Shown one piece after another: positions 7,489-56,509 of a stretch of 64,000 nucleotides of DNA. This stretch comes from Diplonema papillatum (lineage: Eukaryota; Euglenozoa; Diplonemea; Diplonemida; Diplonemidae), in contig JAPJBO010000919.1 in assembly GCA_030068145.1 (NCBI GenBank), positions 26,154 through 90,153 of the forward strand. The letters run 5' to 3'. The notes below the pieces were generated by a model, which was given only the letters and a program-made list of their open reading frames with translations, made no database searches and had not been told where the DNA came from. A program made the position numbers and the translations under genes. Numbering within the stretch: the first letter of the stretch is position 1; each line of letters begins with the position of its first letter.

Positions 7489-9438
7489 GAGAAGCTGGGC
7501 CCGTTTTGGCCGCGCACGCCTCAAGACACGATACCCGGTTGCTTCTGGAGAGGCGCGCTTGCGGCGAAGGTCATCTAAACCCGTTCAGCCTTCGTTCCCG
7601 CTTTTCTTTTTGCAGAAACAGGGTCTTCTGGATCTAGATTTTGTGATTACTAATTTTTGGAGGGGACAAAAGCACGCTCAAGACATGGACTTCGCATCGC
7701 GAAGCCAGCTCCGGAAAAAGCACTGCGACGGATTCCATACAAGTATTACAACATTAGTAAGGCGAGCTGGCAGACTGCTATCTTGCACTTTGGTCGGATC
7801 GTTCGCTGGCAATTCAGGCTGATTTATGCGGTAAGAAATCGGTGTTCAACATTCAACGCTGCCCTCTTCGACGCGACTAGTAACCGCTCATGATGCCAAA
7901 CTATCCGCGAGCATCCGTATCTACAACTTCATTATCGAGGAAACCTCACTTCGTGTTTTCTTGCCAACAACTGCAAGAAAATCAGAGCAGCGTGTTCTCC
8001 ACCTGCGCCAAAACACGGGGGGCCTGATTCCTCTGCACCCAATACCTGAATCGGCCACCGGCGCTGTGCAGCTGGTACGATTCAAAGCAGGCGCAAGAAA
8101 GGATGGACAGGAAAGCATTGCATAACTGTTTCTATGAAAGGAATGACTGTTGAGGAAAGATCTCTAACGAATAGCTCGCCACCTTCAGTTTGTGACTTTG
8201 TTGGTCGTTCTGGCTGGCGGAGTCAAAAACCTAAGGCCACAAACCGATTGATTGTCACGGGTTAGGTCTTTTGCAAACCCCGCTTTCAACCGGAAAGTTC
8301 CCCGCCTCTATGGTCGACTGAGTGCTCCACGTGCGCGTCATGCCTGCGACAAAGTGCCCCTGACAGGTTCGATGACAGGTACGCAAGCAAGGGGTGCGGG
8401 TGCTTTTGTAGAACGCTTAAGCCCGCCACTAACCCAAAATTTGCCTGTGTTTCGTGTGGGGCCCCAGCACGTTTTCCTCCTTTGGGATTTTGCAACTGGC
8501 GGCCTCCTTCAATGCAGGTGCTCATACAAAAAGGTAACGTGATTTCGCATTTTGCGACAGTCTTCAACAAGGCACCTACGAGTGTGCGAGGCACCACCCG
8601 AGCCAAATTTTGGCATCGTATTGCCGGATTGAGATTCATGAAAACATGTGTGGCGACGGTAACTCTACACTGTCTTCAGTCGACAGTGTACAGTGGCGGA
8701 GCTGGGGCTACTTTACTTCAAAAAATACCCCATAACCCCTGGAAGCCCTAAAGAAACAAGGACGTGTTGGCCCCGTTTCGCTGTGATTACACCGGAACCA
8801 CTTTCCTCGCCTTTCTTTCTCGAGAAGAGGTCAAGTGCGCAGTACGACGTCCAAACGCAGTGGGTGTGCAACTCAGTGCAAGTGCGGGAGGCGAGGGTCC
8901 CCAGATTTCGATCCTCGAAGACCGGATGTCCCGTTGCTTCCGCTGTCGACTTAAAACGATAGGGTAGGAATGGAGTCTAGGGTGTGCCTGTGTACAAATA
9001 CACTGAACGCGTGTTGAACACGCGCAGAGAGAGGCGACACGAAAAGAGAGGGAAACTGAACTGCTATCATCACCCCTGTACGCGATTCGGTGGATGAGAT
9101 GCTAGGGTAGGAACAAATCCGAATGCTGCTTTCTTTTTGCTTTTGCCAAAAAAAGGGGAGGGGGGGAACAGGGGCTTTCTAATTGGTCTTCGCATTCAGT
9201 CAATACCGCTGAACTCTTCGAGGCTCGCCTTACGTACAGCTGCGAGAAACCCAAGTGGTCAAGCTGGTGAACGGCGTAGTACGAGTCAAACGCCAGATGC
9301 CGGTTCTTCCAACTTCCAAGCCACTGGGTGCAATCGTGGCATTCCGCGCCACACACTCGGTAGGGTTGTCGTGTTTGCCCGCTTTTCGGCAGCAGCAAAG
9401 CAGGATCACGATCGTCGTTGCCAGTAGGTCGCGCGCTG
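7489..9438. other. Intergenic region between repeat protein and rotatin-like gene
   Basis: About 1.95 kb without a supported gene. It holds one copy of a dispersed repeat (about 8403-8560). The remaining open frames are short and carry no recognisable motif. Confidence 0.55.
8403..8560. repeat. Dispersed repeat, second copy at 20868-21020
   Basis: Two copies on the same strand share long words such as acgcttaagcccgccact (variant acgcttacgcccgccact), ctgtgtttcgtgtggg and caggtgcttatacaaaaa. The 20.9-kb copy has a short extra segment before the last word. No coding potential and no clear terminal repeats are seen. It is probably a non-autonomous mobile element or its remnant. Confidence 0.7.
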
Positions 9439-31700: not shown

Positions 31701-33327
31701 CCCCCCTCACATGCTATTTTCACTGTGTGAGGGGGGAGACGCTACCTGTCACTCTCTAAGGTGGTCACCACGGTGGGCGGTCAGAAAAAAAAAATTTTTT
31801 TTTTGCCCCAAATACCACACTTTGGAAAATTTTTGTGGGCCCACTTTTGGCAGGGAATTTTGACCATTTCACCTTAGAGAATTTGACCACCCAGCCTCCA
31901 AGGCAACTGCACTGTAGGGGGGGGGGGTCTGGTTTATCCGGCCATCCGGCCAAAGTGGCTGATCCTTAACAAGAGCGCTGGTCCCCCCCCAGTAACAGTA
32001 ATAATGGTCGTTCGTTCAACAGGGACTTCCTGGTTATAACACAGATCTTCACAAGCTTGGGGTCCCACCACGGGTCTACAACCGCGCACCAAAGAGGCAC
32101 TGGATCGCAATTTCCTGGAATCGATCAGAAACGAGGGTTTCTGGCGATAAACAAGGGGGGGGCGGATGGATATGCATACCAAACCTGGAAAAGAAGTGGG
32201 TCGCCCAAATTCGTAAGAAATGATCAGCCAGACAGGCTGGACAGGGGAGACACCTCTAACCAACACCAGTGATTTTCCCAAGCATGTGCATAAAAGAGGC
32301 ATACCTGATAGAATTCCCAGCCGGCATCGTCTTCACGCATATGATCGAAGACGACACGGATGATGTTGACGATCACCTGCAGTGGGACTGCAACGGCGAG
32401 GAGCTTCTTGTCACGATCGGACAGGCAAGGCTTAAGGAACGACCAGCCAGTAGCAATGAGGATGACCACTGTGAACAGTAACATGCCCTTGAGAAAGAGG
32501 AAGATGAAGTACATGACACGGTAGAACCCCGTGTCCTGCCCGTGGTCACTGAAGTAGAAATATCGAGTTGCTTCGAAGAACAGAGTTCCGCTCTTCATGA
32601 ACAGAGTAATGGCCATCAAGAAATGGACCTTGTTCACATGCTCCCGGTTGTCATTCATCCACTTGATCCACTGCAGCAACATGCCTGCGGCGACGCAGAA
32701 GAAGCAAAGGAATAGCCAAGGAAGCTGTTGATCGCCACTTTGTAAGTACGAGCCAGGGTTTTTCTCCGTCACGATCACTGTGAAGCTCTTGAACCAATCC
32801 GCTACGGGCACCTCGTCCGATGATTGGCTTTCTTCGTTGCTGCAGCGAAACAGGATAAGAATCACAAATGCTTCGGGGGCTTCGTTGAAAACGAATTCAC
32901 CTTCGTAGCCGGTGAAGGTTCCCTCCTTCTTCTTGAGCACTATTTCGTTGCCCAGCATATCTGCCTTACCTACTGCGGCGCAGTGTTTCTGCAATGCCTC
33001 CTCCGTTATGGCTGGTTTTGATTGCGCCTTCGCTGGGTAGGTCATGAACCCGATACCGTGTCGTCCAGTTGGTGGTGCGGGCTCGTTTTCTCCCACATTC
33101 GCCCATTCAGCCACCGGGACGGGTTTGGCGGGGTCAGTAAACGTGACGTCAACCGCGACAGTGCCCTGAACGTCATACACGTAAACCCCAATGTCGTGCC
33201 AATTCGCATCATCTATGTTCCCCTTCGGCCATCGAATAAGCCCGCCTCGGATGACCCCGTCAGCCGGCTGCGCCAGCAGCAGCAGCATCATCCCGGCCGC
33301 GAGGCTGGGGTACAGAAGCGGCCGCAT
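23491..33327 (-). CDS. GOST-type seven-TM protein (GPR107/TMEM87-like), three exons
   Basis: The GOLD-domain seven-transmembrane (GOST) family acts in the Golgi/trans-Golgi and in trafficking. Proposed exons: 33327-32305 (341 residues), 25107-24976 (44) and 23895-23491 (134), all phase 0, total about 519 residues. The ATG at 33327 opens a clear signal peptide (LYPSLAAGMMLLLLAQPADG). A lumenal GOLD-like domain follows, then membrane helices starting near LPWLFLCFFCVAAGMLLQW. Exon 2 carries ASVRQLHEAATTDGKVARNL, the GPR107 signature region (RHLQEA-x-TDGKAA). Exon 3 supplies the last helices and the tail FRPHKENPYLEL, matching the FRP-x5-NPYLQL end of GPR107/108. Splice sites: CAG|GTATGC, CGCAG|ATT, CGG|GTATGT, ACAG|TAT. 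The introns are 7197 and 1080 bp. The join restores one continuous family alignment, so the model is strong although no transcript was seen. Confidence 0.88.
25417..25555 (+). repeat. Dispersed repeat related to the 204-bp array at 38.85-39.38 kb
   Basis: Lying in GOST intron 1, this segment matches the reverse complement of 38940-39080, sharing gtcgattc, ggcttccatgcccgg and accacgaaccacgcacat with a few changes. The copies are in opposite orientations, so the element has moved rather than simply duplicated in tandem. Confidence 0.7.
25998..28404. mobile_element. Putative TIR element in GOST intron 1
   Basis: Perfect 12-bp terminal inverted repeats cacggtgcacta (25998-26009) and tagtgcaccgtg (28393-28404) bound about 2.4 kb. 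Immediately inside both ends are clusters of the palindrome actagt in words such as tttttactagtgcactagtc, running in opposite directions. No transposase frame is recognised inside. The interior includes an EF-hand relic, so the element may have captured a host fragment. I see no certain target-site duplication, and the element call is inference. Confidence 0.4.
26402..26599 (+). pseudogene. EF-hand protein relic inside GOST intron
   Basis: A GC-rich island reads on the plus strand as an EF-hand. Codons 26503-26538 give the loop DADDSGLLTFKE, with acidic or oxygen ligands at loop positions 1, 3 and 5, Gly at 6, hydrophobic at 8 and Glu at 12, flanked by RVFDAV and LIKY. Upstream codons in a different frame (26402-26488) read GLDLGELAVKRASLSEGDV, which looks like the preceding helix-loop region. 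The frame changes at a run of five T (26489-26493), and a stop follows at about 26605. It lies antisense within the intron. A decayed copy of a calmodulin-like gene fragment is the best reading; an unrecognised plus-strand exon is the alternative. Confidence 0.6.
28436..29085. repeat. Two tandem copies of a G/C-run-bounded element
   Basis: Copy 1 (about 28436-28714) and copy 2 (about 28770-29080) share tgctgatactaagcctgag, ttctctaaggtgaaatggtg, gggccaaaaaaaaatttttt and ccttagagcggtcaccaccc. Each copy is interrupted by a C-run after gggtaccc and followed by a G-run. The copies contain opposed ctctaaggtg and caccttagag words, giving an internal inverted repeat. A diverged third member lies in the opposite orientation at about 31690-31930. 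This looks like a small non-autonomous element family that carries homopolymer runs. Confidence 0.75.
28715..28769 (+). repeat. 55-nt uninterrupted poly(G)
   Basis: A run of 55 G residues sits between the two tandem element copies. On the GOST sense strand it is poly(C). Other G- or C-runs of 10-25 occur nearby (28421-28433, 28848-28872, 29077-29132, 29200-29216, 29547-29569). Part of the length may be sequencing or assembly error. Confidence 0.85.
29131..29200. repeat. 70-bp dispersed repeat, identical at 55274-55343
   Basis: The two copies appear identical over 70 bp, starting gtacccacccacccctcg and ending gcctta-gcatcagcact, and both are flanked on each side by G-runs. In reverse complement the end (agtgctgatgctaag) matches the start of the tandem element at 28436, so it belongs to the same family. 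Identity over 26 kb implies recent movement. Confidence 0.85.
29995..30150. repeat. Array of perfect palindromes (acttgtcatatgacaagt)
   Basis: About six adjoining palindromes built on the half-site acttgtcat, in forms with tcatatga or tcataatatga centres, spaced by short variable linkers. The array can cruciform or fold as RNA into many alternative hairpins. It lies inside GOST intron 1. No array of this type is known to me as a standard regulatory element. Confidence 0.9.
31690..31930 (-). repeat. Diverged reverse copy of the G-run-bounded element
   Basis: Read on the minus strand it shares aattctctaaggtgaaatgg, the A-run/T-run junction and accaccttagag with the copies at 28.4-29.1 kb. It is bounded by C- and G-runs (31689-31699, 31918-31927). 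Confidence 0.65.
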
Positions 33328-33580
33328 TTTCGTTAGGGTGGGGTCAACCACAGTTGACCGGTGACGTTTGAGTAAGACCCTAAGTTTGCCCTGAAAAGTG
33401 TGCTTTCCCCGAAGTGACGGGTTACCCGCCCCGCGCAGCAGTGATGCCCGCACGACACGCCGTGCGCAGTTGTTGAGAAGTGCGCACGGCTAACGTTGTC
33501 TGTATGAGGGCCCCTTTCAGACCATGGCACGGCAAAGACACATTTGCTGCCGCTGAGTCCCGGGACAAGTTGGTCTTCTG

Positions 33581-40897: not shown

Positions 40898-43800
40898 GAC
40901 TTTGGAACAGGAGGGGGGGGTGCGAGAAAGATTAGAACCTAGCGTGCGTAGTTTTGTGTTTCCGATGATCCCGTATGGGCGTTCAGCTTGGTGTCTTTCG
41001 ACGTTTTTGTTTTATTATTATACTTGTTCGTTGTCGGCAACAACATTATCATCTACGTTTAGGGAGTCCTTGTCGTGCCTCAGTGTTCTCAGTTTTATTT
41101 GTTTACCATGGGTTTCTGGACTTTAGATGTCATCAGGCCTTGCGCTCCGCACGCGGAACGTGCAGTACTCCGATGGAATATGTAGTTTATTTAAGCCAGT
41201 CCGTGTCCTCCTGATAGACCACTTTTCTTTTTTCTTTTGGATCGTCAGAACTTGGAATGCGCACACCTCGACGGGTTTGCTTCCTGCCACGTACGACGTC
41301 TACACAGACAATTGACCGCTCTTCTTAACGAGACCGCGGAAAGACACAGGAACTGGAGAGCCACACAGCCAAAGAAAAGAGAGAGAGAGAGAGAGAGACG
41401 AGTTAGAGTGCAGGGACCATCTCTCCGAGGAGTATCCGGTCGCCCCACTACTATCCCGTACTACTACGGCGGGCGCAAGTCGTTGCGCCGTGGGCGCGGA
41501 GCGAGCCGTGGCCCTGTCAAAGATGATTGTTGCACCGATGGTGGCGCAGCCGGGGGCGTTCTGACTGGCGGACGAGACCGCCTGGCAGGCGTGTGTTGAC
41601 ACGTTGTTTCGCGGGCTCTCCTCCTTTTGGCAATAGCCCGCCCTATGGCGGCGGCTAGCATCTTTACAGAGAATCTCAACTCCCACTGAACATAGGGTAC
41701 GTCGTGCGGATATTCAGGCACGGCATCGTTCCAGCTGTTACGGGCGCAAATTGTTTCCAGCTTGCCCAACATCCACTCGGTCTTCCGTCCAGCCGCAAAG
41801 CGTGGGCGGTGGGTACAACCCGGCATAGCCGGCGCACCAAAACAGCGGAGGGAACAGACCCCCTGCCGCCACTTCCCAGGGAAGGAGGCGACTCCTGAGT
41901 CGGCGCAGCACAGGTCGTTGATAGCTCGCATAAGGTACCCAATTTGCAGCCCCTTCTCGGCGAAGGTTCTCCCTGGGAGCTTCGAACGCGTAAATGCCTC
42001 AAAATCAAGCGCGAGTTCCACGCCTGTCGTCGGGAGAGGGTTGGAGCTGACCCACGATAGACTCCGCAGCCAGAAGACCAACGTCGCTGCGAAGCGGGTT
42101 CCGATGTTGGTCGTAAGCAACTTACGACTGTCCGTTGCTAAGTGTACGTCGTATTTCGTCGACGCACCTGAGGCGAGTTCCCAAGGGCGTGTTGCCGCAA
42201 GGCTCCGCTGCGCCTGCGCCATCTCGATTGAGATCGTACCGATCAGCCTCTGGATCTTCTCCAGGAGGTCAGGAGGGGTCCCGTAGGGGGGTATCCCTCT
42301 AATGCACAAGCACTGGGGCATGTCCCGGACCATCGCCTCAGCAATGCAAAACCGGGATCGCAGCTCGTTCCATCTACAACCTGGGCCCGGACATTGCCAG
42401 TAGTAATGCCACAGGGTCCCCGTCGCACCGCTGTCGCAGAACTCGCAGTCGCCGCTCCCCGAACCCCACTTCCTGCGGCACCATTCCCGTGAGTACACCG
42501 CTCCCCCAATACATCGACTGATCGCGGAACTCAATTTGTGGTCCGTCGCGCGGTTCAGCCAAAGCCGATTCATGGCACGTACGTCCACCCCTCCTTCGAT
42601 TCCGTCAAATCCTTGTCTCTGTGTGGTCAAGTAACGCCACGCGCGCAGACGCAGGCCCTCACGAAAGAGGTGTGGGGCTTCTTTACCGAGTAGCGACACG
42701 GGAGTCCCGTCGAAAGACAGGGACTGGAAGCTGTGCTGCGTGGCCCGTAGGAATCTTATCTCCCGCAGAAGATTAGCCATAAGACCTACGGGACCCTTGA
42801 TAGACGAGTCGGCTCCCACGCGAAGGAGAGCGTCCATCCTCACCCGAAACCTCTCTTTCCCGTATTGTTTCACGAACGTGCGGAATAAGCTGAAACCTGA
42901 GGCGCATGCCGGATCACACAGGTGTGCTTTTGCAACCAGGGAGAGAACCGCAAGAGGGCTCTTCGCCCGGTTAGATCGAGGGATCACGCAAGCGGAGAGT
43001 GCCGTTCGGAGCGTTGAGCTGTTGACGAAGCCACCTGTTGTATTCGTGCAGTAGGCCGCCCCGTAATACGCGGAGGCTGCGATCGTCTGCATTATGCGGA
43101 ACTTCGTACGATGCATGAGCGGCGCCGCCTCAAGTCTGGCCGCGGCCTCGACCGTGGCGTTGGCCCTGCGGTTGTCAACGGGTCCCTCTGTGCCCAGGGG
43201 GACACCCAAAACCTTCACTATTTTGCTCGATCGAATTATTTTGCGACCGATCACGAGGCGAGGAGGCTCTGGGGACGTCGAGAAGGAGACCGACTTGTCC
43301 TCGTTGAGGGCAAAGCCTGTCAGGCTGTCGAACACCTCTGTGGTTCGAATTCCCTCTTGGAGTAGCCTCGCAAGTTGCGACAGCAGGTACAGATCGTCGG
43401 CGAACGACTTTGGACTCACCCGAGCTCGGCTGACCAAGGCCTTCGAGAGAACAGAGAGGAGCGCGTAAAAGACAGACGGGAACAATTGACACTGAGTTTT
43501 AGAGTTATAGTTCGCTTGAGAATCCGGGATTTTAGAGTCTCCGGGTGACCTTCGTCAGGTTCTAGTTCGAGAAGAGAGTGAAGGAGTGAGCAACACAGAG
43601 ACCAGGAACTGAGACTTTGGAACAGGAAGGGGGAGGGATGCGAGAAAAACAGAGCCAAGCGTGCGCAGTTTTTTTTCTTCTTTTTTTTTCCCGACGACGT
43701 TTTTATTTTGTGTCTTTGTGCATTATTATTTTACTTGACTTTGGAACAGGAGGGGGTGCGAGAAAGATTAGAACCTAGCGTGCGTAGTTTTGTGTTTCCG

Positions 43801-45383
43801 ATGATCCCGTATGGGCGTTCAGCTTGGTGTCTTTCGACGTTTTTGTTTTATTATTATACTTGTTCGTTGTCGGCAACAACATTATCATCTACGTTTAGGG
43901 AGTCCTTGTCGTGCCTCAGTGTTCTCAGTTTTATTTGTTTACCATGGGTTTCTGGACTTTAGATGTCATCAGGCCTTGCGCTCCGCACGCGGAACGTGCA
44001 GTACTCCGATGGAATATGTAGTTTATTTAAGCCAGTCCGTGTCCTCCTGATAGACCACTTTTCTTTTTCTTTTGGATCGTCAGAACTTGGAATGCGCACA
44101 CCTCGACGGGTTTGCTTCCTGCCACGTACGACGTCTACACAGACAATTGACCGCTCTTCTTAACGAGACCGCGGAAAGACACAGGAACTGGAGAGCCACA
44201 CAGCCAAAGAAAAGACAGACGGGAACAATTGACACTGAGTTTTAGAGTTATAGTTCGCTTGAGAATCCGGGATTTTAGAGTCTCCGGGTGACCTTCGTCA
44301 GGTTCTAGTTCGAGAAGAGAGTGAAGGAGTGAGCAACACAGAGACCAGGAACTGAGACTTTGGAACAGGAAGGGGGAGGGATGCGAGAAAAACAGAGCCA
44401 AGCGTGCGCAGTTTTTTTTCTTCTTTTTTTTTCCCGACGACGTTTTTATTTTGTGTCTTTGTGCATTATTATTTTACTTGACTTTGGAACAGGAGGGGGT
44501 GCGAGAAAGATTAGAACCTAGCGTGCGTAGTTTTGTGTTTCCGATGATCCCGTATGGGCGTTCAGCTTGGTGTCTTTCGACGTTTTTGTTTTATTATTAT
44601 ACTTGTTCGTTGTCGGCAACAACATTATCATCTACGTTTAGGGAGTCCTTGTCGTGCCTCAGTGTTCTCAGTTTTATTTGTTTACCATGGGTTTCTGGAC
44701 TTTAGATGTCATCAGGCCTTGCGCTCCGCACGCGGAACGTGCAGTACTCCGATGGAATATGTAGTTTATTTAAGCCAGTCCGTGTCCTCCTGATAGACCA
44801 CTTTTCTTTTTCTTTTGGATCGTCAGAACTTGGAATGCGCACACCTCGACGGGTTTGCTTCCTGCCACGTACGACGTCTACACAGACAATTGACCGCTCT
44901 TCTTAACGAGACCGCGGAAAGACACAGGAACTGGAGAGCCACACAGCCAAAGAAAAGACAGACGGGAACAATTGACACTGAGTTTTAGAGTTATAGTTCG
45001 CTTGAGAATCCGGGATTTTAGAGTCTCCGGGTGACCTTCGTCAGGTTCTAGTTCGAAAAGAGAGTGAAGGAGTGAGCAACACAGAGACCAGGAACTGAGA
45101 CTTTGGAACAGGAAGGGGGAGGGGTGCGAGAAAAACAGAGCCAAGCGTGCGCAGTTTTTTTTCTTCTTTTTTTTTCCCGACGACGTTTTTATTTTGTGTC
45201 TTTGTGCATTATTATTTTACTTGTTCGTTGTTGACAACATCATCATCATTTACGTTTAGGTAGTCCTTGTCGTGCCTCAGTGTTCTCAGTTTTCGTTCTT
45301 TACTATGGGTTTCTGGACTTTAAGACGTCATCAGGCCTTGCGCTCCGCACGCGGAACGTGCAAAACTCTGTAGCTTATTTAAC
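40898..45383. repeat. 743-bp tandem repeat, three copies plus a partial
   Basis: Unit 2 spans 43737-44479 and unit 3 spans 44480-45222, differing at only a few bases. Unit 1 (from 40898) is split by a LINE. A more diverged partial (45223-45383) carries the same 3' sequences and runs into the last codons of the GTPase-SecA-vWA gene. On the minus strand each unit has an aataaa word followed by a hairpin (gcacgttccgcgtgcggagc), as in that gene's 3' flank. The array therefore seems to be an amplified copy of the gene's terminator/3' UTR region. Short antisense and sense frames of 60-90 codons recur in each unit; none looks real. Confidence 0.9.
41381..43466 (-). mobile_element. 5'-truncated LINE (reverse transcriptase C-terminal half)
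   Basis: Comparison with the uninterrupted 743-bp units gives the exact insertion: 2086 bp flanked by aaaaga (41375-41380 and 43467-43472). The element frame enters at 43466 and stays open to a stop at 41464, about 667 codons. FADDLYLLS, the reverse transcriptase active-site motif, lies about 25 residues in; then thumb-like sequence, a CCHC knuckle (DCEFC ... LWHYYWQC) and a long C-terminal region. The 5' truncation removes most of the RT and any endonuclease. The 3' end on the minus strand is a (TC)n tract instead of poly(A). An open frame and a clean target site indicate a young insertion. The non-LTR clade was not determined. Confidence 0.85.
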
Positions 45384-48300
45384 GGATATCATCCTCTCCT
45401 CTCCTCCCGCCATCTGCTTCCACAGGGCATCGGCAGGGAAGACGTGACCATATTTCTCGTAATAGGCCTCTACGGCTTCAGTTCCGCCGATGGCTTTGCT
45501 GATACAAACCCCCATTGCTTCTGCTAACTTATTAGCACCCTGTTTTTGATCCTGAATATCCAAGAACGCGTGAGCGCCGCCGGTTTTCGTCGCAATCGTC
45601 TCAAAACAGTTTTTGGTTTCCGGTAGATCTTCGTCCAGACAGCAATAAAAAGCGTGAATCGGAGATTCAATGGAGCTGAGTTCGTCTTCATAATACGTGG
45701 CTGTCCCAATCGTTTTCACCCAGTACTCTTCCTGCGCTCCTGAACGATAAGCTCGTTTTTCCGTAACGGCGTCTCTCGTGTTGGCTTCCCTGTCACCGAT
45801 AAGAAGTCCTCCATGGACGATACCTTCTTTCTGCATTTTGTTGAAGTGCCACAACGCGGCTTCAATAGCTTCTGCACCCAAGCCGCAAGATAATTCTACA
45901 GAATCTAAGTAAGTCTTTATATTATCGACGCTCGTTTCCCACCCTGAGACAGAAAGCAGCTCGTCGACGTCTTCAGCGTTGTAGTTTCTGTATGCAACGA
46001 ACTGCAAGCTAGGCAAGCAGTTGTACATCTCACCAATACCGGAGACACGGTCCAGCGTGCCCTGTATTGTGGACTTCAGAGCGTCAAGAAAAGGTCCCAT
46101 CGAAAGTGTGGCGTCCATCATAATGATGACGCGCGCATGAGCCGTGACCGCTGATGAAAAGCCTCGATTTCTCTCGTTCAGAAATTTGACCACGTCGGCG
46201 GAGTCGGGGGTTTTGATGAGGGTGTGGAGGAAACGCATCCCTTCTTCGTGAACTTCGTGCAGTACTCTTGCCTTCTCCCGGTTTTTTTGGCAATCAAGGT
46301 CGTACAACTCGGACCGGCTTTTGTTGATTGTGGTGAGCCGCTTGTTTTCATCTTTCATCTTTTTAACACAGTTTTCGTCAATGCCAATACCTTCCAGCGC
46401 TTGCTGATTCAGAATCATGGCGAAAGAGCCCTTGTTGCCCTGGCGGTTGGTCCGGCCTGTGATTTGGTTGAAGGCGGCTGGACTGCGCGATACGTACGTC
46501 TGGATTACATGCAAGCCGCCTGCGTCGTTGATAGAGTCACCGTGACACACGAAGTCAGTTCCACGGCTGAAAGCATCCGTAGCAAGGGTGATCTTACCCA
46601 AATGCCCCGCGGCCTTGACACAAGCTGCTATATTGTCATCGTCCATACCTTCCCGCAACTCCTGCACGCCCCTCAGTTGTTTGGACACATTCGATTTGAG
46701 AAAGTCATCAAGGGTGCGGGTTTCGAAGAAAACGATTACGGGCCGTTTCACCTTGTCCTGGCACTGCTTCACAGCATCCACAATGCATGTGTAGTGTTCA
46801 TCCGGCTTGTTGAGCATAACGCCCTCTGCAGTGTCGCCTGCAAAGACCAAGGCATGATTCGTGGGGTAAACCGACGGCACGTAGGTGTACCCCTCGACGT
46901 TGTACTCCTCTTTGAGCACAGCTCGCTCTGTTTCGCTAAGCCACTTCAATGTTCCTGTCAGCCCGACGACCACGTCATATTGCTGCGGTATCTGCGCATA
47001 CGAGAAACATCCGCAGTCGATATTCAGCCCCGTTTTGCCGTTCCGGCTCTCCAGGGTCACCGCGTGGTTGTCATGTTCCTTGAAGTATGCCCACATCGTG
47101 CTGTATCCGTACGATATCTCGAAGTCCACTTTGTGGTCTGCCCTGCGGTATCCAATTTTTTGTCTCTTCTTGCATACTACGTACTTGCCCTCGTGGGAGG
47201 AGAAGTTGACCAAGGCTGCAACCATGTGCTGCACCGCGGCCTCCATAAGCGGGTTCCACTTGGGACCGAGGCACCCCACACACGCAGCGCCTTCTACAGT
47301 TTCCAGAGTGGTTTTCAGGTCCTCGATGGTCAATTTCTTTTTTTTGTGTTGCCTCCAAAGATGCGCTGCCAATGCCGTCACCTCCTCGCGTTGTAACATT
47401 GCGAAGACGCAGTACTCCTCGCTGTAAAAGTCTTCCTGCAGCAGAACATCAACTTCGTCGATGATTGCGAAACGCTTTTTAGACCCGGCTTGTTTGCCAA
47501 GAGTGCCAGAGCTGGCTTCGCCGTTCAGCAGCGACACGACCAGTTGCCGAATGTCGCTGTGCCTGTTGATGAGCTGCTCACATTGATCCTTCAATGTCCC
47601 ATAACGGACATCCTTGGCGACGCCGAATGCCCTGAAAATGTGAGAAAAGTCAGCTTTATCGCGAGCAGACAAGTACGTCGAGTAGCAGATGCAGTCCACG
47701 GAATACCCCAGCAACGCGGCTATTATTGCCACCGCAGCTGTCACTATCGACTTCCCTTGCCCGGTGAGGATCTCCGCGAAGTGGTTCTTGAAGTTTTTTC
47801 CGTCGCTGCCGTCGAGCCCTAAAAGCCTGAATATCGAAAGCACCTGTCCCGCATTCGGCTTCGTTATGCCGCCCCTGTACTCATCAGGCCTTTTGGGATC
47901 CTTCGGTCCAAGGAGTAATTGCACCGAATCTTCGAAGGACAGCGTCCAATATGCGAACACGCAAACAACCATCGTGACAGTGTTGTCGATGGAAAACACG
48001 CCTTCCCCTATTTTTTTTGCTCGCCGCACCAGATCCTCTTTCGTCTTCTCTTCCCGCATGAGCTGAAGGTCCTCGTCGAGCACAACCCAGTACTCTTTTT
48101 CGAACTTACGGTGCAGCTCCAGGAGTTTCTTTGCGTCCAACTTGGTATTGCTAGTGTCTTTGAGCATCATTTTCAACAGCGATTCTGCGTCGACCTGCGT
48201 TCGCACGTTGCGATACCTGACAGCGATATTATCAAATTCCTTGTGTTCTTCGATCATTTGCCGGGCGTACGCCTGTTGATTGGTGGCTTGACAGCTTTGT

Positions 48301-51300
48301 AGCAATTCGCGCAAAGAAGCCAACCGGCCAGGATCCTGCTTTTGCAGTAAGCCGCATATCACGCGTGTCAACAAAGCCTGGACTTCTGACGTGTGCACGG
48401 CCATGGCTTTCAGGTAGAGCAAACGCTCGACGAAGGTCTCTATCGTGATTTTTGTAGAATCAGCAAAGCAGCTGTCAAGCGTGTCGTTCAGGATACGACG
48501 AACATAGTCGAGAAAACTGCGAGCTTTCTGCGGCAGGTTATGGTGCTCCGGGTCGAGGTGCATGTGAGCCAAACCCAGGACCGAGCAGTATACATTCAGA
48601 TTGTCCCAGGTTTCTCTCGACTCGCTTGCCCAGGGGTTGCCGTTGATGATCTCAACAGCTGCGTCGTGTATCTGCTCAAGATTCTTCCCGACGGTACCGC
48701 ACGACTCTTTGAACATAACGGAAACGTCTCCGACATGTGGTTTCAAACGTTCCAACGTCAGCTCTTTTAGCTTCTTCAAACTTCCTGAGACGTCTTTTAT
48801 CAGTGTCGTCCTCTCTGTAAGGCTCGGCAACTTCGGGTGTCCCTTCAACTCCTGGTTCGCAGTGGTCACGGTTTTTGCGAGATTCTCCTTCAAGCTTTCT
48901 ACACACTTTGCATATTCCACGACGTCTGTCGCTCCATGTAGCAACGAGGGCGGAATCAACTCCTTGAGCCTTTGTATGAATGTCTTGCCTTCGTTCTTCT
49001 CTTTGTTGAGAGCTTGCACATAGTTGTCCAGGTCTCGAAGCTCGTCGAGGAAGGGACACAACTCTATGCTCGGTGCGCTGTCGCAGTCTCTGAGGAAACG
49101 TGCCATCGACAGGTGTTCGAGAACCTTTTTTATGGCATCGCAATATGAGTCAGCGACGCGGACCCCACGGGCATCCCCCGAGTTGCGTACCCTGGCTTCC
49201 ACGACGCACGCACCGTGCAGAAACATCCACTTATCCTGCAACAGCCGAAGCGGGAAGGGCTCCAGAAAGAGTTTCAACTCGTTCACAACCGCCGACTCGA
49301 TGAGCGTCCAGAGATCGCCTGCCCTTGTGAGAAGGGAATCGGCGGTGTGAGGGAGCGGCAAGGGCAGCTGGTTCCCGGCCGCTGCTTCGGCAAAACGCTG
49401 CCACTGGTCAAGAATGCTTGCGGCCTCGGTGAGTGCATCGCTCAACATACCGTCCTGGACGAAATTCTTCACCTCGTTCTCCAAGTGTAGGATTGCGTTC
49501 ACCACTACACGGCACTTGTACTGTTTCCGTTCCGTCAGTGCTGCGCTAACCCAAGGTTCTAAATTTCGCTCTTTAAGGAATGTCGCGTTGTTACTTGCCA
49601 TACGTACTTCCACCTCATCACGAGCCTTGTCAATTTCGGGTGAGATACGGATGAACAAGTCTTCGGGAATGATTTTATTCAGCCCCTGCCACCAGTCGAA
49701 ATCCGCTTCGTCGTCGTCTTTCAGTGCCTGCACTTCGGCAGTGACTCCAGTAACGATGCCGTTACAAACCTATGTTCGTGTTTGGTTGCAAGAAGCTCCA
49801 GAAATAGACAGCGCAGACACAGGGACACAGACACAGGGACACAGACACAGGGACACAGACACAGTCGCAGTTTCACTGAGAGCTGATGCACCCTGGCTTC
49901 CACGACGCACGCACCGCGAAGGTCTGCAGCAGAACTTGGCATGCAGGGTGAGGACTGGTTACAGAGAGAGAGGAGCTAAGTTGGCTGAATGGAAAGCGAC
50001 TCTACTGTCCAACAGTCTGATGCCAGCTGCAGACATGGTTTTGCTTCTCGCTTTCATTCAGGCGTTCTCGCTATACGACTACACACTCAACACAGACAGA
50101 GACACACACACAGACTCAGACACAGACAGACCTCTGTATGGAGTTCAGCGTAGTAGCATTCGTCGCGCGGCCCCAGTTCCTTTAATGTGGACAGAAACAG
50201 CATTGGCGGCTTGCTGTAGAAGTCAGCAGCGGAGCGGCGTCCAACCTCTGCAGCTTCTGCCTTGTACGAACGCTTGATCGTCGCCCACTGTTCTTGAATG
50301 GCTTCTGAAAGCTTCTCTTGAAACGACAACCAGTTCTCTGGCATGTCGGCAGCGAGTGCTTCGCATTCGTCTAGCTGGCGAAACCGTTCGGTGCTGTTCA
50401 ATACACCGGCTTTGGTAAACGCGAAAATTGAATCCTCCAAGAGCTTGGTGGAGTCGATGTGAGCAGCCTTCAGTTCAATCTTTGTGTCCTCAGAGACAAA
50501 AGTAATTTCGCGAATGCCCGCAAGGTTGCCAAGCCGTTGGATGCAGTCCTGGATGGTCCTAGTTGTCGGGTTGTCCAGTACTGACGACAAGCTCCTTACT
50601 CTCTCGGCAATCTCTTTTAGGGACCCGAGAAGGGACTCGCCATATTCTTGCCCAAGCATGCGCGCCTCCTCAGAAACCTCGGTACCGTCCGCGCTCAGCC
50701 GCGCGAAAGCATCCGAAAAGGCTTTGAATTGCTGGTGCTGCCTGGCAAATCGCAACTGGGCCATTAAACCATGCTTCAACATCGAAAGGTTGCTGCCGGC
50801 GATTTGCAGCAAATGGCCGAAAGAGGATTGATCGTCGCCAAATGGTCCGAAACGATCCACCGACTTCAAAGCATTCGCAGCCGACAGCAATGTTCCGAGC
50901 ACTTCAGGTTCGGGGTTCTTTTCCGCACGAGAGAGTTCTTCTTTCATCCGTTTGTACACTTGAGCGAAGACTTCTATCCAAGTGCTAACTAGTTCGTCCA
51001 AGCTGCTCAAAAGCGACACGCCTTTCTTCTCTGCAACATTCACAACCTCAAAGTCAGACGGACCTGCCACCTGAAGCTCACTTGCGTATTCCATCATGCT
51101 TGCAACCTCCTTAACATTATCCAAGTACGAGGCCCGGACCTGTGATTCCTGTAGTTCCTTACAGCGTTCGATCAGGAAGTCCGAAGTATCGGCACACACT
51201 GTTCGCAGGTTTTGTGCTGGACTGACCACGCGTTCGTGAGACACCGTGACGAACAAAAACCGCATCGCTCGCCTAAGCTGGGCAGGCTCGAACCTCGCCG

Positions 51301-53989
51301 TGTCCTCTGTCTTGAAACTCGGAATGAGTGTTTCAAAGCTGGCGACCAGATCCTTGGTACAGCTCTCCAGCCCGAACCCGGTTGTATGTTGTAGCAGAAC
51401 AACAACATCAAGGAAGCTTGCTGCATCGACTGCGTGCGCCATCGACTTTGTCTCAACATTCTCCACCCAATGCTTCACACCAGAGCTGACCTCTTTTCTG
51501 AAGTCTTCGCAACAGCCGAGGAGTTGCTTCGCATTAATGTCTTCGCTTCGTAGTCCGACCTTCTCCACTGCATTCGTAAGGGCCTCCTCTTCGGCTTTAA
51601 ATTTTTGGTAATCAAAGCCTGTAGCACCTGTCTTGCCACTTTTCAGGGTTTCGAGAAGCACAGCCCATTTTGATCTCAGACTTGAGCTGAGTTTGGAGAC
51701 TGCGTCTCTGACGGCCTCGTTTGCTTCGTCCTCAAGCCCACGAAAACGACGCGCTTGGCTTTTTTTCCAGACCGCTTGCTGAGCAGTGCCCAGATCGCGT
51801 AGTATTTCCGGAACTACCTCAAATGGCATTTCATGGGGTTCCGTTCCTCTTAAGACAGCAATCCGCCTCTCGCCGTAGAGCACAAAAGCTGCGTCAATTG
51901 CAGAAACGATTTGTTCTGCAAATTCGCCCTCAAGGATTGACAGCTCGAGGGCCGCAATGTCTTTGAAGGAGACGTTGATGGTGCACGCGTCTTTGAGCTT
52001 GTCGTTTTCTAGCTCGTCGATGGTCTTCTCTTTCTGACTCTCAAACCATTCTGCAGCTTGCGCTGACATGTTGTCGTGTGCGGTCCGGTTGAGGAGTGTC
52101 GTTGGCACCAGTTTGATCGCTTCCAAGGGCGTCGCTTTTTTGATCAGATCAATAACAAGTGAGGCACTACGCTCCCCGATGTTCTGAAGGCTCGTCCACT
52201 CCTCGTCGAACCATTCAATGGCTGTCGTCCCCGATTGCTTGGCGAAGTCGTTGCGAAAAGCGTCTTTCAGTTCCTTCGCCCTTCTAGCACCCTCGATTGT
52301 TTTTCCCGCATCGATTAGCAGCAGATCTTCCATCTTGGCTTTTTGCCCATCGTATTCTGATGGGCTTACCTTGACGTTGCTTTTATAGCGAACAGACAAA
52401 AGTTCGATGATATTCATCTTTACGCGTAGGAGTCCGGTCTCAAACATGGTATCTGTGGACTGAGGACTATCAGGAGCTGGAAAAGCTTTGAAACCATTCA
52501 TCCTGTCTACGATTTTGGGTAGCCACGAGGAATCGGATGCAAAGTTGGCGAGACATGCGTCCAATGCAGCCAGCAACCTCTCAGATTGCATGGTTGCCTT
52601 CCTCTTCATCTCTTTGAAGCATGTAGAGACAATGTCCCAAAAGGCTGACCCTTCGGACAGCAGGTCGAGGAAATGTACCACGAGGTCGTAATAGTACTTC
52701 GCCCGAATGTACCGGTTGGCCAGCAGATCCGAAGAATACTGCTGCGTCACCTTTCCAAATTGACTGCCAAGCTCCTTCTGCGCCTTGTCACTTAGCCACT
52801 CTTTGAACCTTCCCGGGCCTTCTGTCGCCTTTTTTCTTTTGACGAAGTCGGCGAATGGCTGTGGGTCCCCAGATGTGGGTTGGATGACGCACAACTCTGC
52901 AGGTTGCTCGCACTGAGTTTTCATCTGTTCGAAAGCTTTGTAAGCGGGATCGTCAGCGCTTAGAGCCCGTAGCTTGGCGGCGATATAATTGCGTATTTGG
53001 TCGCTGGTGTATCCGTCTGATTTTGTGAACGCGTACACTACAGAAGTACCGAATTCGCTATGCTTCCGGTCTGCCTGCGGGATGAGCTGCATCAGGTTTT
53101 CAATCAACGTCACCAAGCCAACGCCTTTCGGTCCTATGTCGCTGACGCCGACGATACCTATAGGAAGGACGCTTTTCGCCCGGTTGAACGCTGCAGCGAC
53201 GATAGTGCCGTTCACGATTTCGCTGGACAGGTCAGTGTCGGAGAACCCAGGAGTGTCACACCACAGCATCCCCTGTTGCTCGACGACGCACACGCAACGC
53301 GTCTCTGAACGCATTGTTGAGCCGACTGTGCACGCAGCAGGCAGGCTGCTACCTTTCGGTTTGAGGTGCTTGGACCCCCCATGGTCCTGCGGAATTTCTT
53401 CGAACTCAGCACCGGCTAGCCAGTGCATTGTCGTGCTCTTTCCACACCCAGTCTCCCCCAGAAGAGCGACGATGTCCTTGCCCTCAAAATCATCGCCAGC
53501 TTTCTTACCAGCTTCCAAGAGGGTGTACACCAAGGGCAAATTTACCGGCCGAGTGCACTTCAGTAGGCTCCACAGCGCGTCTGCGGTGCAATTCTCTTTC
53601 AGACATTCAAAGGCAGACGCGACGTCAGCGTCGAACCCTTCTTCCTTCAAGCACTCCTCTAACTGACTGCAGACAGCCGGGATTTTTACGTCCGGATCCT
53701 GTAGTAACCCGTTTTCCGTGTCGAAGTGCAGCTCCAGTAGTGCCAAGCATCTCATCGAGCCGTCTGGCATCGCGCGGATGGCGTTCCAGGCAGGCAGCTG
53801 CCGAGTCGGCAACGCATCCTCCCGCAGTTCCTTGACCAAGGTTTCCACGACGCTATTCTGCTGGGTGCTGGTGCTGTCAGATGTGGTAGGCTCGGGGTCC
53901 TCGTCCAGCAAAAACCCTTTCCAGACCGAGTACAGGTGGACGTCATTCTGCTGAGCGGGGCCAAGTTCGGTCGGCTCGAAAGGTGACAT
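45375..53989 (-). CDS. Giant GTPase - SecA-like motor - vWA fusion (two exons)
   Basis: Exon 1 (53989-50132, 1286 codons) starts at the first in-frame ATG. It holds a P-loop GTPase: GETGCGKST at about 178-186, DTPGF at 245-249, TKSD at 322-325, most like AIG1/IRG-type GTPases. A long, mostly helical region follows. Exon 2 (49769-45375) carries some 600 helical residues, then SecA-type motor motifs: ILTGQGKS, YSTYLSARD, IIDEVD, GLTGT, ATDAFSRGTDF and QITGRTNRQG. A von Willebrand A domain comes last, with MIDAS-like DATLSM. Both exons are phase 0 across a predicted 362-bp intron (50131-49770; donor GTCTGT, acceptor CATAG), giving YYAELHTE-VCNGIVTG and about 2750 residues. The donor is weak, so two adjacent genes remain possible. 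SecA normally drives protein export in bacteria and plastids. The lack of a transit peptide and the GTPase/vWA partners point to another role, perhaps unfolding or remodelling of proteins in the cytosol. Confidence 0.82.
49800..50130. repeat. Intron of the fusion gene: microsatellites and an exon fragment
   Basis: The predicted intron holds a cagggacacaga-type array (about 49816-49862) and an acacagacaga array (about 50092-50130). It also has a 27-bp segment at 49890-49916 that is identical to exon sequence at 49189-49215 of the same gene (translating GACVVEAR on the minus strand). The intron thus includes a copied piece of its own downstream exon. Confidence 0.75.
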
Positions 53990-56509
53990 TCTTTGCTGGA
54001 ATCCTTCGTCTATTCCCTGTGTTCCCCACCCCCTACCGCCCCCTAGGACCGCGGTGGCGGGCAAATGCGTTTTCGTCCAGGCGTTTTTGAGGACACCGGC
54101 ACGTACAAACAAACATCGCGCCTGTTCTTTTAGAACATGGAAACTGGGAGACGTCTTCTCCCGTCCACTTGAGCAGTGCTGGGTACAAACGCCTGCGTTG
54201 CGTTTGCAGATTGGGCAGGTGCCGTTTAAAAACGCCTACCGCAATGCAGTGCACGTCAGGTATGGAAAGACACATGAGTGAAGTAGTGCGGTAAGTACAC
54301 GTACGGAAGTGCCCCCTATGTGGGTCGTAAGTGTAAGAGCGACTTACAAATAAGGGACATTGGTCGTCATTCCCTGCCGCAACAACCATGTTCTGGTACT
54401 TCGAGACTGGAGGTCCTATGAACATGCAATGTGAATAGCCTCTATTCGAGCCAACCCGGTTTTTAATGTTGCGAAAGTGTATAGTTTTTGGACTAGATAA
54501 TCGTGCGGAGCAAGCTTTTTTACCCTTCCGAAAGGTATGCGGGTGGCAGAGTGACCGGGTGTTGGCCTTCAGGCCGGTAGGCCCCCGCCCATGACATTTT
54601 CCCGGTCGAAGATTGTTTTCGAGGTTTGTTGCGTTTCGGGATCTAATGTGCTCGAAAGTTGCGTTTTTTGCGGAGTTTCTCAGTATCTCGCGGCTTACCT
54701 GGTGGGGGGTCCGGGGGGGTCTCCCCCCCGGTACTGGCGCCGAACTTGCCATCACAGGCCAAACATAGCATCACTCGAACTACGCTTCACCTTTAGCATC
54801 GCAGCTTTGCTTCATCCGAACTTTGCATCGTCCGAACTTGCTTCACCAAAACTCAGCTTCGTGCGGACTTTGCTTCGCCCGAACTAAGCTTCGCCCGAAC
54901 TTTGCTTCACGAGAACTTAGCTTCGCCCGAACTTTGCCCGAACTTTGCTTCGCCCGAACTTTGCTTCACCAGAACTTAGCTTCGCCCGAACTTAGCTTCG
55001 CCCGAGCGAACTTTACTGTTCTTAGCCGAGCACACGTACTTTTTTGCGCTCCAACATTTTCAAATCATGACTCGAAGCTCAACGAAGTCCCACACTCGTG
55101 AAACTCATCTCAGCTTGGCTAATCTCCTCACGCGGCCAGCGTTCTCGTTCGAGTATACAATCAATCGTAAGTTTCCGCAGCAGAAAAGGTAAGTGGAAAC
55201 CCTCTGTTGTCGATGATTCTTGTGTTGGCCACAATTCCATCCAGCGATTCGGCAGGGGGGGAGGGGGGGGGGGGTACCCACCCACCCCTCGTTGCCGTCC
55301 GGCTGACAACGATGCCGAGTTTAGGGGCCTTAGCATCAGCACTGGGGGGGGACAAGGGAAACGGAGCAAGAAGTGTTTCGAGGAGAGAAGCCCTGCTGTG
55401 GAGAGTGCAGTAAGTCAGTCCACCCCGTGCGTCGAACGAAACGCCTGCTGCTGTGGGTCAGCAGGACACCTCGTCCAGGTGGGTAGCGTCACCTCCCCGA
55501 TGCGAGCTGATTGCCGGATGGATGCGGGCAACTGCACCTTTGTACCACCGACACCCTCTGGGTGCTTCCAGGTTACGCGCAATCGGGGGTTTGAAACATG
55601 ATGATCAATACCGAAAGCCCGCACCCACGCGGCGTTGACTGTGGCTGGTCTTTGTAAGGGCTGCCTTGATGTTACTTTGATCAAACTCTACTAACCTCAA
55701 ACTGCTGCTGTCTATCAGCAGTCTATCACAGGCGCGACGTGCATGACGGTCGCAGAGCGCTGCGGAGGGTTGCACAACGGATGTCTGGACTACGACATGT
55801 CGGCATATAAGAACTGCAGTTTTATTTCCCTCCTCTTGGAGAACCAGCCGCCAAACCTCGCTTCCGTGTACGTAAGAAAAGAGGGAGAGAGACACGGGTT
55901 TGGAGGAGGACGCGCGTGCGTCGGGGCCGGTGAGAAGCACCGGCCACCTTGCTAGATAAATCCTGCCGCGGAAGAGGCAACCTCTTACTCGCTGGGGTCG
56001 GCACCCCTGCGGAGACCCTCCGTGCCTCCACGCGGAAGGAAACAGTAGGCTTGGAAACATTGGCCTGACCAGTGCTGCAAACGAGGCCACAACACCACCG
56101 CTACCAGGTATTGCAACAACACGAGCAACAGCGCCGCAGAAAGCGCGAGAATTCGCCAGCGCCGGCCGCACCCGCGGCTGAACTGAAAGGTCAGGGGGGA
56201 CCAGCGCCACTGGGACGCCACAACAAAGTGGCGACACCGGCAGCGACCACAGTGCAAAGGCCAACCACGCCTCGAGGAGAACACACAAAAGTGCCGCAAA
56301 CTCCACCCCATAACGCGAACGGGCGAGCGTCGGCCCCGCCAATTACACCGTCACCAGCAATGAAGGCATCAGCGCCGGTAAAGCGAAGACGAGAGATGAC
56401 GACCCCGCAACGGAAGAAGAAGTGCCCAGCGCCGCCCGTGAAAGCGAAGGCAAGGGTCGCAGAAGCATGCGAACCGGGAAGGGAAGGGTCGCAAAGCGAT
56501 CGCGGAACA
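53990..56509. other. Repeat-rich spacer upstream of the fusion gene
   Basis: No gene is firmly supported. The frame of the fusion gene stays open upstream of its first ATG to about 54112 without another ATG. A tRNA-A-box-like word (tggcagagtgacc, 54544-54556), followed by a ggccttcaggcc hairpin but no good B box, recalls the tRNA-like sequence at 40.3 kb. Also present are the minisatellite at 54779-55015, a 70-bp dispersed repeat (55274-55343) and the partner of the 0.9-kb repeat (55585-55690). Confidence 0.55.
54779..55015. repeat. 16-17-bp minisatellite (cttcgcccgaacttag)
   Basis: More than a dozen variants of gcttcgcccgaacttt and gcttcaccagaacttagc in tandem. No coding sense is evident. 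Confidence 0.88.

What the first reader, a model, noticed from the sequence alone, without database searches (positions are those of the whole stretch)
45375..53989. Single gene fusing an AIG1-like GTPase, a SecA-type motor and a vWA domain
The sequence shows two very long minus-strand frames that join in phase 0 over one predicted intron. GTPase motifs (GETGCGKST, DTPGF, TKSD), SecA-like motor motifs (LTGQGKS, IIDEVD, GLTGT, ATDAFSRGTDF, TGRTNRQG) and a MIDAS-like DATLSM occur in that order. SecA is normally a bacterial/plastid export ATPase with partners SecYEG. Here the motor sits in a ~2750-residue protein between a GTP switch and an adhesion/metal-binding domain, with no visible transit peptide. 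This suggests a regulated unfolding or translocating machine of unknown role, perhaps in defence or membrane remodelling (inference).
Basis: partly seen in the sequence, partly recalled or inferred. Interest (0 to 1): 0.88.

Follow-up and report, generated by a model that had tools for sequence, protein, structure and literature searches.

The report
Giant GTPase–SecA motor–vWA protein
A marine single-celled predator carries an intact giant gene that joins a GTP switch, a motor of the kind bacteria use to push proteins across membranes, and a metal-binding adhesion domain; it belongs to a little-described family found in many eukaryotes and some bacteria, and its job is unknown.

Summary

It is not unique. 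The genome is Diplonema papillatum (Euglenozoa). A paralogue on C215 is collinear over 2820 columns with its intron at the same place, and a tandem pair lies on C835. One database search gave 199 hits (120 listed), from rotifers, Tetrahymena, Hexamita, Arcella and others. Four bacterial MAG loci (Legionellales, two Gammaproteobacteria, Chlamydiae) hold all three modules in one ORF. Spacing and motor/MIDAS residues are conserved.

The motor lacks recognisable SecA_SW and SEC-C parts and is followed by vWA instead, so an exporting SecA is unlikely. I favour a GTP-gated, ATP-driven polypeptide-pulling machine (0.45); its use between phagotrophic hosts and intracellular bacteria is the weakest step. 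Large eukaryotic secA genes and their transfer to bacteria were already reported; I found no paper on the GTPase–SecA–vWA architecture in nine searches of open-licence papers.

The parts
50132..53989 (-). Exon 1 (aa 1–1286), ATG at 53989; GTPase plus first part of the helical region
   Evidence: start shared with EukProt model P0001
49770..50131 (-). Intron, 362 bp, GT–AG, phase 0; the paralogue on C215 has its intron at the same place (ELHTE|VC vs ELHEK|VC)
45375..49769 (-). Exon 2 (aa 1287–2750) with stop TAA
52805..53497 (-). GTPase domain (about aa 165–395): G1 GETGCGKST 178, conserved SET, G3 DTPGF 245, G4 TKSD 322
47988..52612 (-). Long region without Pfam domains above cut-off (about aa 460–1880, interrupted by the intron), collinear with the paralogue; its last ~180 aa are modelled mostly as helices, the rest was not modelled
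   Evidence: Pro+Gly 7.8% over aa 481–1700
46353..47975 (-). SecA-type motor, two RecA-like domains (about aa 1885–2425)
46212..46340 (-). Single 43-residue helix (about aa 2430–2472), in the place of the SecA helical scaffold
   Evidence: AlphaFold model; equivalence is inference from the SecA alignment range
45480..46145 (-). C-terminal vWA domain (about aa 2495–2716) with MIDAS DATLSM 2505 and D2612

Best explanation
This is an intact member of a widespread family of very large proteins (mostly 2600–3600 residues when complete) in which a GIMAP/Toc/Era-like GTPase is joined through a very long, probably helical stretch to a SecA-derived ATPase motor and a C-terminal vWA domain (shown). Most likely (inferred) it is a cytosolic, GTP-gated machine that pulls on polypeptides. 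The GTPase would govern recruitment or assembly on a membrane or target. The motor would grip and move a polypeptide with the two RecA-like domains and the diverged segment that stands in the place of the SecA substrate clamp. The vWA domain, which follows where SecA has its wing and two-helix-finger parts, would hold the client or partner through a metal ion. It would extract or unfold proteins rather than export them through SecY. The setting may be the contact between phagotrophic eukaryotes and bacteria living in them (weakest step, about 0.3).
For: Module identities. Motor residues other than Walker A are near-invariant in a 130-row family alignment (DE.D, RG of RGTD, Q..GR..R all 100% of residues present), as are the MIDAS residues; Walker A was used to pick the rows, so its conservation there is not independent. 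Spacing: GTPase P-loop to motor Walker A median 1892 (10–90%: 1781–2067; window 1775, just below that band), motor to MIDAS median 553 (541–570; window 552); 71 of 86 rows of 2600 aa or more show both flanking motifs (motifs were looked for only within 1100–2300 and 450–800 residues). The C835 tandem copies are under purifying selection, dN/dS 0.26 over 806 codons and 0.41 over 1187 codons. SecA_SW, SEC-C and SecA_PP_bind not found by Pfam. Accessory domains in single relatives: DnaJ (P0006), U-box (P0044), Death (P0083), C2 (P0125, P0137), ankyrin (P0047). All three modules in four bacterial MAG loci.
Against: I found no biochemistry for any member. SecA-like motors belong to superfamily 2, and the same model also matches RNA helicases at lower Z (16.8–17.0), so a nucleic-acid substrate is not excluded. 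Most of the middle 1400 residues was not modelled. The host–bacterium setting rests on distribution and domain company only; PADLOC gave only weak P-loop hits. The window protein has Q instead of E in TGEGKS (97% E in the family), so its ATPase could differ. Part of the EukProt model's gaps, if real, would remove G4 of the GTPase, motor motif V and the vWA domain.
Confidence: 0.45

Rival explanations
1. Nucleic-acid machine: a SecA-derived superfamily-2 motor that now acts as an RNA/DNA helicase or sensor with GTPase and vWA partner domains.
Confidence: 0.2
2. Signalling ATPase/GTPase hub: large nucleotide switches (STAND- or GIMAP-like) that assemble on detecting a ligand and recruit partners through Death, U-box, SAM or vWA domains; the SecA part acts as a switch, not a motor.
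For: Accessory Death, U-box and ankyrin domains; the GTPase occurs with SAM domains without the SecA motif in P0145 and P0147.
Against: Hydrolysis and coupling residues (motifs V and VI) are kept, more than a simple switch would seem to need; such accessory domains are precomputed for only 6 of the 120 listed rows.
Confidence: 0.2
3. A true secretory SecA working with SecY/Sec61.
For: Motor is SecA by fold; the paralogue is annotated 'Protein translocase subunit SecA' in D. papillatum; SecY-type genes exist in the genome (Sec61 not told apart).
Against: No SecA_SW, SEC-C or PP_bind match; a vWA domain follows one long helix where the wing and two-helix finger would be; 2750 aa with a GTPase in front; branch of 2.64 changes per column to the other SecA-like rows.
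Confidence: 0.05
4. About origin, compatible with any mechanism: either a bacterial gene acquired by eukaryotes, or a host gene taken by intracellular bacteria, perhaps more than once.
For: All three modules in Legionellales, Gammaproteobacteria and Chlamydiae MAG loci, three of them among clear bacterial genes. For bacterium-first: a sister clade of four bacterial loci L018–L021 and P0008 (99/96; P0008 has no named source). For host-to-bacterium: PMC4256840 Table 5 lists L. fallonii lfa2470 [SecA DEAD-like] among 40 genes transferred from eukaryotes, and PMC3639933 argues the same for two Wolbachia secA genes.
Against: Direction not resolved: AU tests reject neither one clade of the four bacterial rows (p 0.597) nor one clade of the other 31 rows (p 0.787) (40 rows).
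Confidence: 0.4

Closest known systems
SecA preprotein translocase ATPase (PDB 2ibm, 5eul, 6itc)
   Different: No Pfam match to SecA_PP_bind, SecA_SW or SEC-C; vWA in place of wing/two-helix finger; GTPase and about 1400 further residues in front
GIMAP/AIG1 and Toc34 GTPases (PDB 2xtn, 1h65)
   Different: No AIG1 Pfam hit; margin over EngB (13.6) and Era (13.1) is small, and Foldseek's own ranking puts MnmE, HflX, FeoB, Fzo1 and GBP1 first at weak E of 2.4e-4 or more, so the subfamily is unsettled
Eukaryotic-type secA genes of insects, Tetrahymena etc. and Wolbachia wBol1_1091/1092; phage WO EAM SecA (PMC3639933, PMC5062602; passages read)
   Same: Very large SecA-domain proteins of eukaryotes, Tetrahymena among them, with apparent transfers into intracellular bacteria
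   Different: The main text of PMC3639933 mentions neither GTPase nor von Willebrand/vWA; the Wolbachia and insect proteins were not compared here
C179 of this genome and fish P0020: a second kind of eukaryotic SecA-like protein
   Same: SecA-derived motor in eukaryotes; the pair is supported 99/96
   Different: Outside the 61-row window family; no GTPase or vWA motif found in P0020

Membership tests
SecA translocase | SecA-type RecA motor domains with Walker A/B, TGT, RGTD, Q..GR..RQG | tested here: met
SecA translocase | Preprotein cross-linking domain (SecA_PP_bind) | tested here: not met
   Not among Pfam hits up to E = 1; a segment of similar length exists between DEVD and TGT, so a diverged counterpart is possible
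SecA translocase | Helical scaffold/wing domains (SecA_SW) and SEC-C tail | tested here: not met
   Not among Pfam hits; vWA follows one long helix
SecA translocase | Works with SecYEG | not testable with these tools
   SecY/Sec61-type genes present, function not inferable
GIMAP/AIG1 GTPase | AIG1 sequence family | tested here: not met
   Only weak general P-loop hits in exon 1, none above cut-off
GIMAP/AIG1 GTPase | GIMAP/Toc-type GTPase fold | tested here: inconclusive
vWA domain | vWA fold | tested here: met
vWA domain | MIDAS DxSxS/DxTxS and distal Asp | tested here: met
   DATLSM 2505, D2612; 100% of residues present in 130 rows; metal binding untested
Family of giant GTPase–SecA–vWA proteins (described here) | Order and spacing GTPase – 1781–2067 aa – motor – 541–570 aa – MIDAS (10–90% bands) | tested here: met
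   Order met; 552 inside its band; 1775 lies 6 residues below the lower band edge, inside the full range 1223–2268
Eukaryotic-type secA of Wolbachia/insects | Grouping with wBol1_1091/1092 | not tested
   Those sequences were not fetched

The most novel reading that the evidence does not exclude
A previously unrecognised class of GTP-gated, ATP-driven protein-pulling machine, built by fusing a GIMAP-like switch, a SecA motor freed from the export channel and a MIDAS client clamp, that is ancient in eukaryotes, has crossed between eukaryotes and intracellular bacteria as one ~3000-residue unit, and is used by both sides of that contact.
Probability: 0.28. Interest if true: 0.9.

Novelty: new variant of a known kind. 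Interest (0 to 1): 0.72.

Why it matters
SecA is a textbook bacterial and plastid export motor. Here a SecA-derived motor sits in a eukaryote that has no plastid (recalled), coupled to a GTP switch and a metal-ion adhesion domain, with motor and MIDAS residues kept across the family. If it pulls proteins it would be a new kind of cytosolic extraction machine beside AAA+ machines. Its presence with all modules in Legionellales, other Gammaproteobacteria and Chlamydiae as well as in phagotrophic eukaryotes makes exchange of a very large machine between hosts and symbionts testable, and members exist in organisms that can be handled genetically (Tetrahymena P0134, Diplonema; tractability recalled).

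Tried and rejected
Two separate genes: rejected because the EukProt model of this gene uses the same joint, the paralogue's model spans it, four bacterial relatives are single ORFs, and a transcriptome entry such as P0108 (name: 'type:complete len:2885') holds GTPase, SecA and vWA motifs in one ORF. Chimeric assembly: rejected, since the paralogue on another contig is collinear over 2820 columns. Bacterial contamination of the window: rejected (intron, eukaryotic relatives, the paralogue annotated in D. papillatum). Viral origin: a scan of viral contigs confirmed 0 of 153 stretches; phage and plasmid records gave only partial matches (11 and 34 records, none covering 80% of the query). MAG mis-binning: rejected for L015 (DnaE, RecJ), L017 (RuvB) and L022 (DnaQ, NhaA, SpoVR, RNase HI) by NCBIfam; for L016 the evidence is weaker (a prolyl aminopeptidase just under its cut-off, weak regulator hits, coding fraction 0.89). 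Anti-phage defence system: PADLOC gave only weak P-loop hits. Alignments A3 and A4 (long window fragments against full-length relatives) stretched the fragment's end over unrelated columns and were not used for folding. I first took the segment between DEVD and TGT for much shortened; the measured lengths (158 vs 169) do not bear that out.

Literature searches for the architecture: (PMC open-licence papers only); none of the listings showed a paper on GTPase–SecA–vWA proteins. Most papers of subscription journals are not covered.
Full report
What is in the window. Two minus-strand frames of 1382 and 1464 codons lie at 50087–54235 and 45375–49769. In 50 shuffles of the stretch the longest frame was 239 codons. 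A public EukProt model of the same gene (P0001, 1826 aa) starts at the same Met and uses the same joint. It also leaves out several stretches, among them aa 314–377 (TKSD) and 2328–2390 (motif V), and ends at aa 2478, before DATLSM. I judge these gaps to be wrong because relatives keep those stretches; no transcript of this locus was available to me.

Which organism. The own-genome search shows 271 Mb in 2910 contigs and five SecA_DEAD places: C179, C215, the window (C919) and two on C835. P0123, 'Protein translocase subunit SecA [Diplonema papillatum]', comes from a contig of 280,429 bases, the length of C215, and is 99.9% identical to the C215 gene. The genome is therefore Diplonema papillatum, a predatory euglenozoan. 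Passages of its genome paper (PMC10161547) say that gene models were guided by assembled D. papillatum transcripts among other sources, that introns are mostly GT–AG and that repeats next to genes occasionally cause spurious introns; SecA, translocase, GTPase and von Willebrand do not occur in the main text.

Paralogues. C215 holds two frames (1677 and 1460 codons) with the same order of modules. P0123 and the window protein align over 2820 columns at 31% identity, and the intron sits at the same place (ELHTE|VC, ELHEK|VC). C835 holds a tandem pair (27–28% identity to the window protein in the motor–vWA part). Between these two copies dN/dS is 0.26 (motor–vWA part, 806 codons) and 0.41 (GTPase–helical part, 1187 codons), so that pair is under purifying selection. 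The window gene itself has no close enough relative for this test.

What kind of SecA. No Pfam match to SecA_PP_bind, SecA_SW or SEC-C. After motif VI there is one 43-residue helix and then the vWA domain, so the wing and two-helix-finger parts (names recalled) have no room and vWA takes their place. The segment between DEVD and TGT is nearly as long as in SecA (medians 158 in 120 family rows, 169 in 13 SecA rows) but is not recognised by the Pfam model. In a simple hydropathy scan the six highest 19-residue windows (top 2.03) all lie in one motor helix next to Walker A; lower windows were not looked at.

Family. Protein searches found 26, 199 (120 listed) and 6 proteins at E <= 0.001; in each only the 7984–7994 candidates sharing most words were scored, and 16 of the 26 (P0011–P0026) are ordinary SecA proteins or the fish protein P0020. 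Named sources of family members include Adineta, Rotaria, Didymodactylos, Hexamita inflata, Tetrahymena thermophila, Arcella intermedia, Cymbomonas tetramitiformis and D. papillatum. Of 173 sequences screened, 150 had a TG(E/Q)GKS motif: 71 had both flanking motifs at the expected distance, 13 GTPase only, 35 vWA only and 31 neither (fragments and other SecA-like proteins among them); of the 86 rows of 2600 aa or more, 71 had both (rows include the window, P0123 and bacterial ORFs). In a 130-row alignment DE.D, RG of RGTD, Q..GR..R, D.T.S and the distal Asp are 100% of residues present (rows were chosen by the Walker A motif, so that motif is not independent evidence). Accessory domains in single relatives: Death, U-box, C2, ankyrin, and a DnaJ domain between motor and vWA. 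The GTPase also occurs with SAM domains and without the SecA motif in P0145 and in P0147 from Eutreptiella.

Bacteria. A scan of the genome-contig collection (one genome for each of 84,980 prokaryote species) gave 51 loci. I examined the ORFs of 28 of the 51. Four carry all three modules in one open frame: L015 Legionellales (3283 codons), L016 Gammaproteobacteria (3093), L017 Chlamydiae (3010), L022 Gammaproteobacteria (3464). Neighbours of L015, L017 and L022 are clear bacterial genes; those of L016 are less telling. In the other 24 no vWA motif was found at the expected place (for those with TG(E/Q)GKS, for the rest); several of these frames run off their contigs. They are other SecA-like proteins or ordinary SecA.

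Tree. From 181 sequences I chose 89 rows for an IQ-TREE. The family (61 rows) is held by 100/100 on a branch of 2.64 changes per column. Within it five rows (L018–L021, P0008) are sister (99/96) to the other 56 rows (91/94); four of the five end before a vWA domain could begin or end and L019 runs off its contig. In the 56 rows those of bacterial loci stand among the rest. The window groups with C215 (100/100) and P0002 (100/95); the C835 pair groups elsewhere, near P0143 and L016, L017, L022 (89/75). The bootstrap had not settled. On a 40-row quick tree, AU tests did not reject one clade of the four bacterial rows (p 0.597) or one clade of the 31 others (p 0.787), and in both cases the held tree even scored better than the free search; nor did they reject the Diplonema rows as one clade (p 0.27). 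The number and direction of transfers are therefore open. The label 'choano' on P0108 in my tree was a guess; its organism is not given.

What is known. PMC3639933 (passages read) reported large secA-domain genes of insects, Daphnia and 'basal eukaryotes' including Tetrahymena, and their apparent transfer into Wolbachia and Amoebophilus. PMC5062602 (passages) lists SecA among eukaryotic-like domains of phage WO. PMC4256840 (one section read) lists L. fallonii lfa2470 [SecA DEAD-like] among 40 genes transferred from eukaryotes. PMC4452313 (passages) treats secondary SecA_DEAD proteins of other bacteria. PMC8195603 (passages) mentions SecA-like ATPase domains in giant actinobacterial toxins. None of the passages I read describes the GTPase–SecA–vWA order, and nine listing searches showed no paper on it.

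Mechanism. Shown: the three modules, their order and spacing, conservation of catalytic and MIDAS residues, no recognisable SecA_SW or SEC-C part. Inferred: ATP-driven pulling on polypeptide, GTP gating, vWA as client clamp (by analogy with MIDAS-bearing machines such as Rea1, recalled), and use in host–bacterium contact. The helicase and signalling-hub rivals are not excluded.

Noticed in passing
G000:C179:137426-140608 (L006 4426-7608): A second kind of SecA-like protein in this eukaryote; it groups with a fish protein (P0020) at 99/96, not with ordinary bacterial SecA.
   Followed up: partly
window 40912-45322: Repeats with a 743-bp period directly 3' of the gene, with further copies about 2.8 kb away; they resemble the gene-adjacent repeats described for this genome in PMC10161547 (passages).
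   Followed up: partly
G000:C835:11401-33915: Tandem duplicates of a divergent family member; one copy reads in two long frames, the other in three; they stand apart from the window gene in the tree, though one clade is not rejected.
   Followed up: partly
window 32224-33489 (-): Seven-transmembrane GOST/GPR180-like protein (PF06814 44.4 bits).
   Followed up: no
window 1589-2671 (-): RING-type protein with zf-NOSIP and Rtf2 matches.
   Followed up: no
P0145, P0147 (Eutreptiella): The same kind of GTPase module with SAM domains and without a SecA motif.
   Followed up: partly
CP113870.1 (plasmid of Candidatus Megaera polyxenophila): A 'SecA-like domain protein' on a plasmid of a bacterium sampled with the ciliate Euplotes woodruffi.
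   Followed up: no
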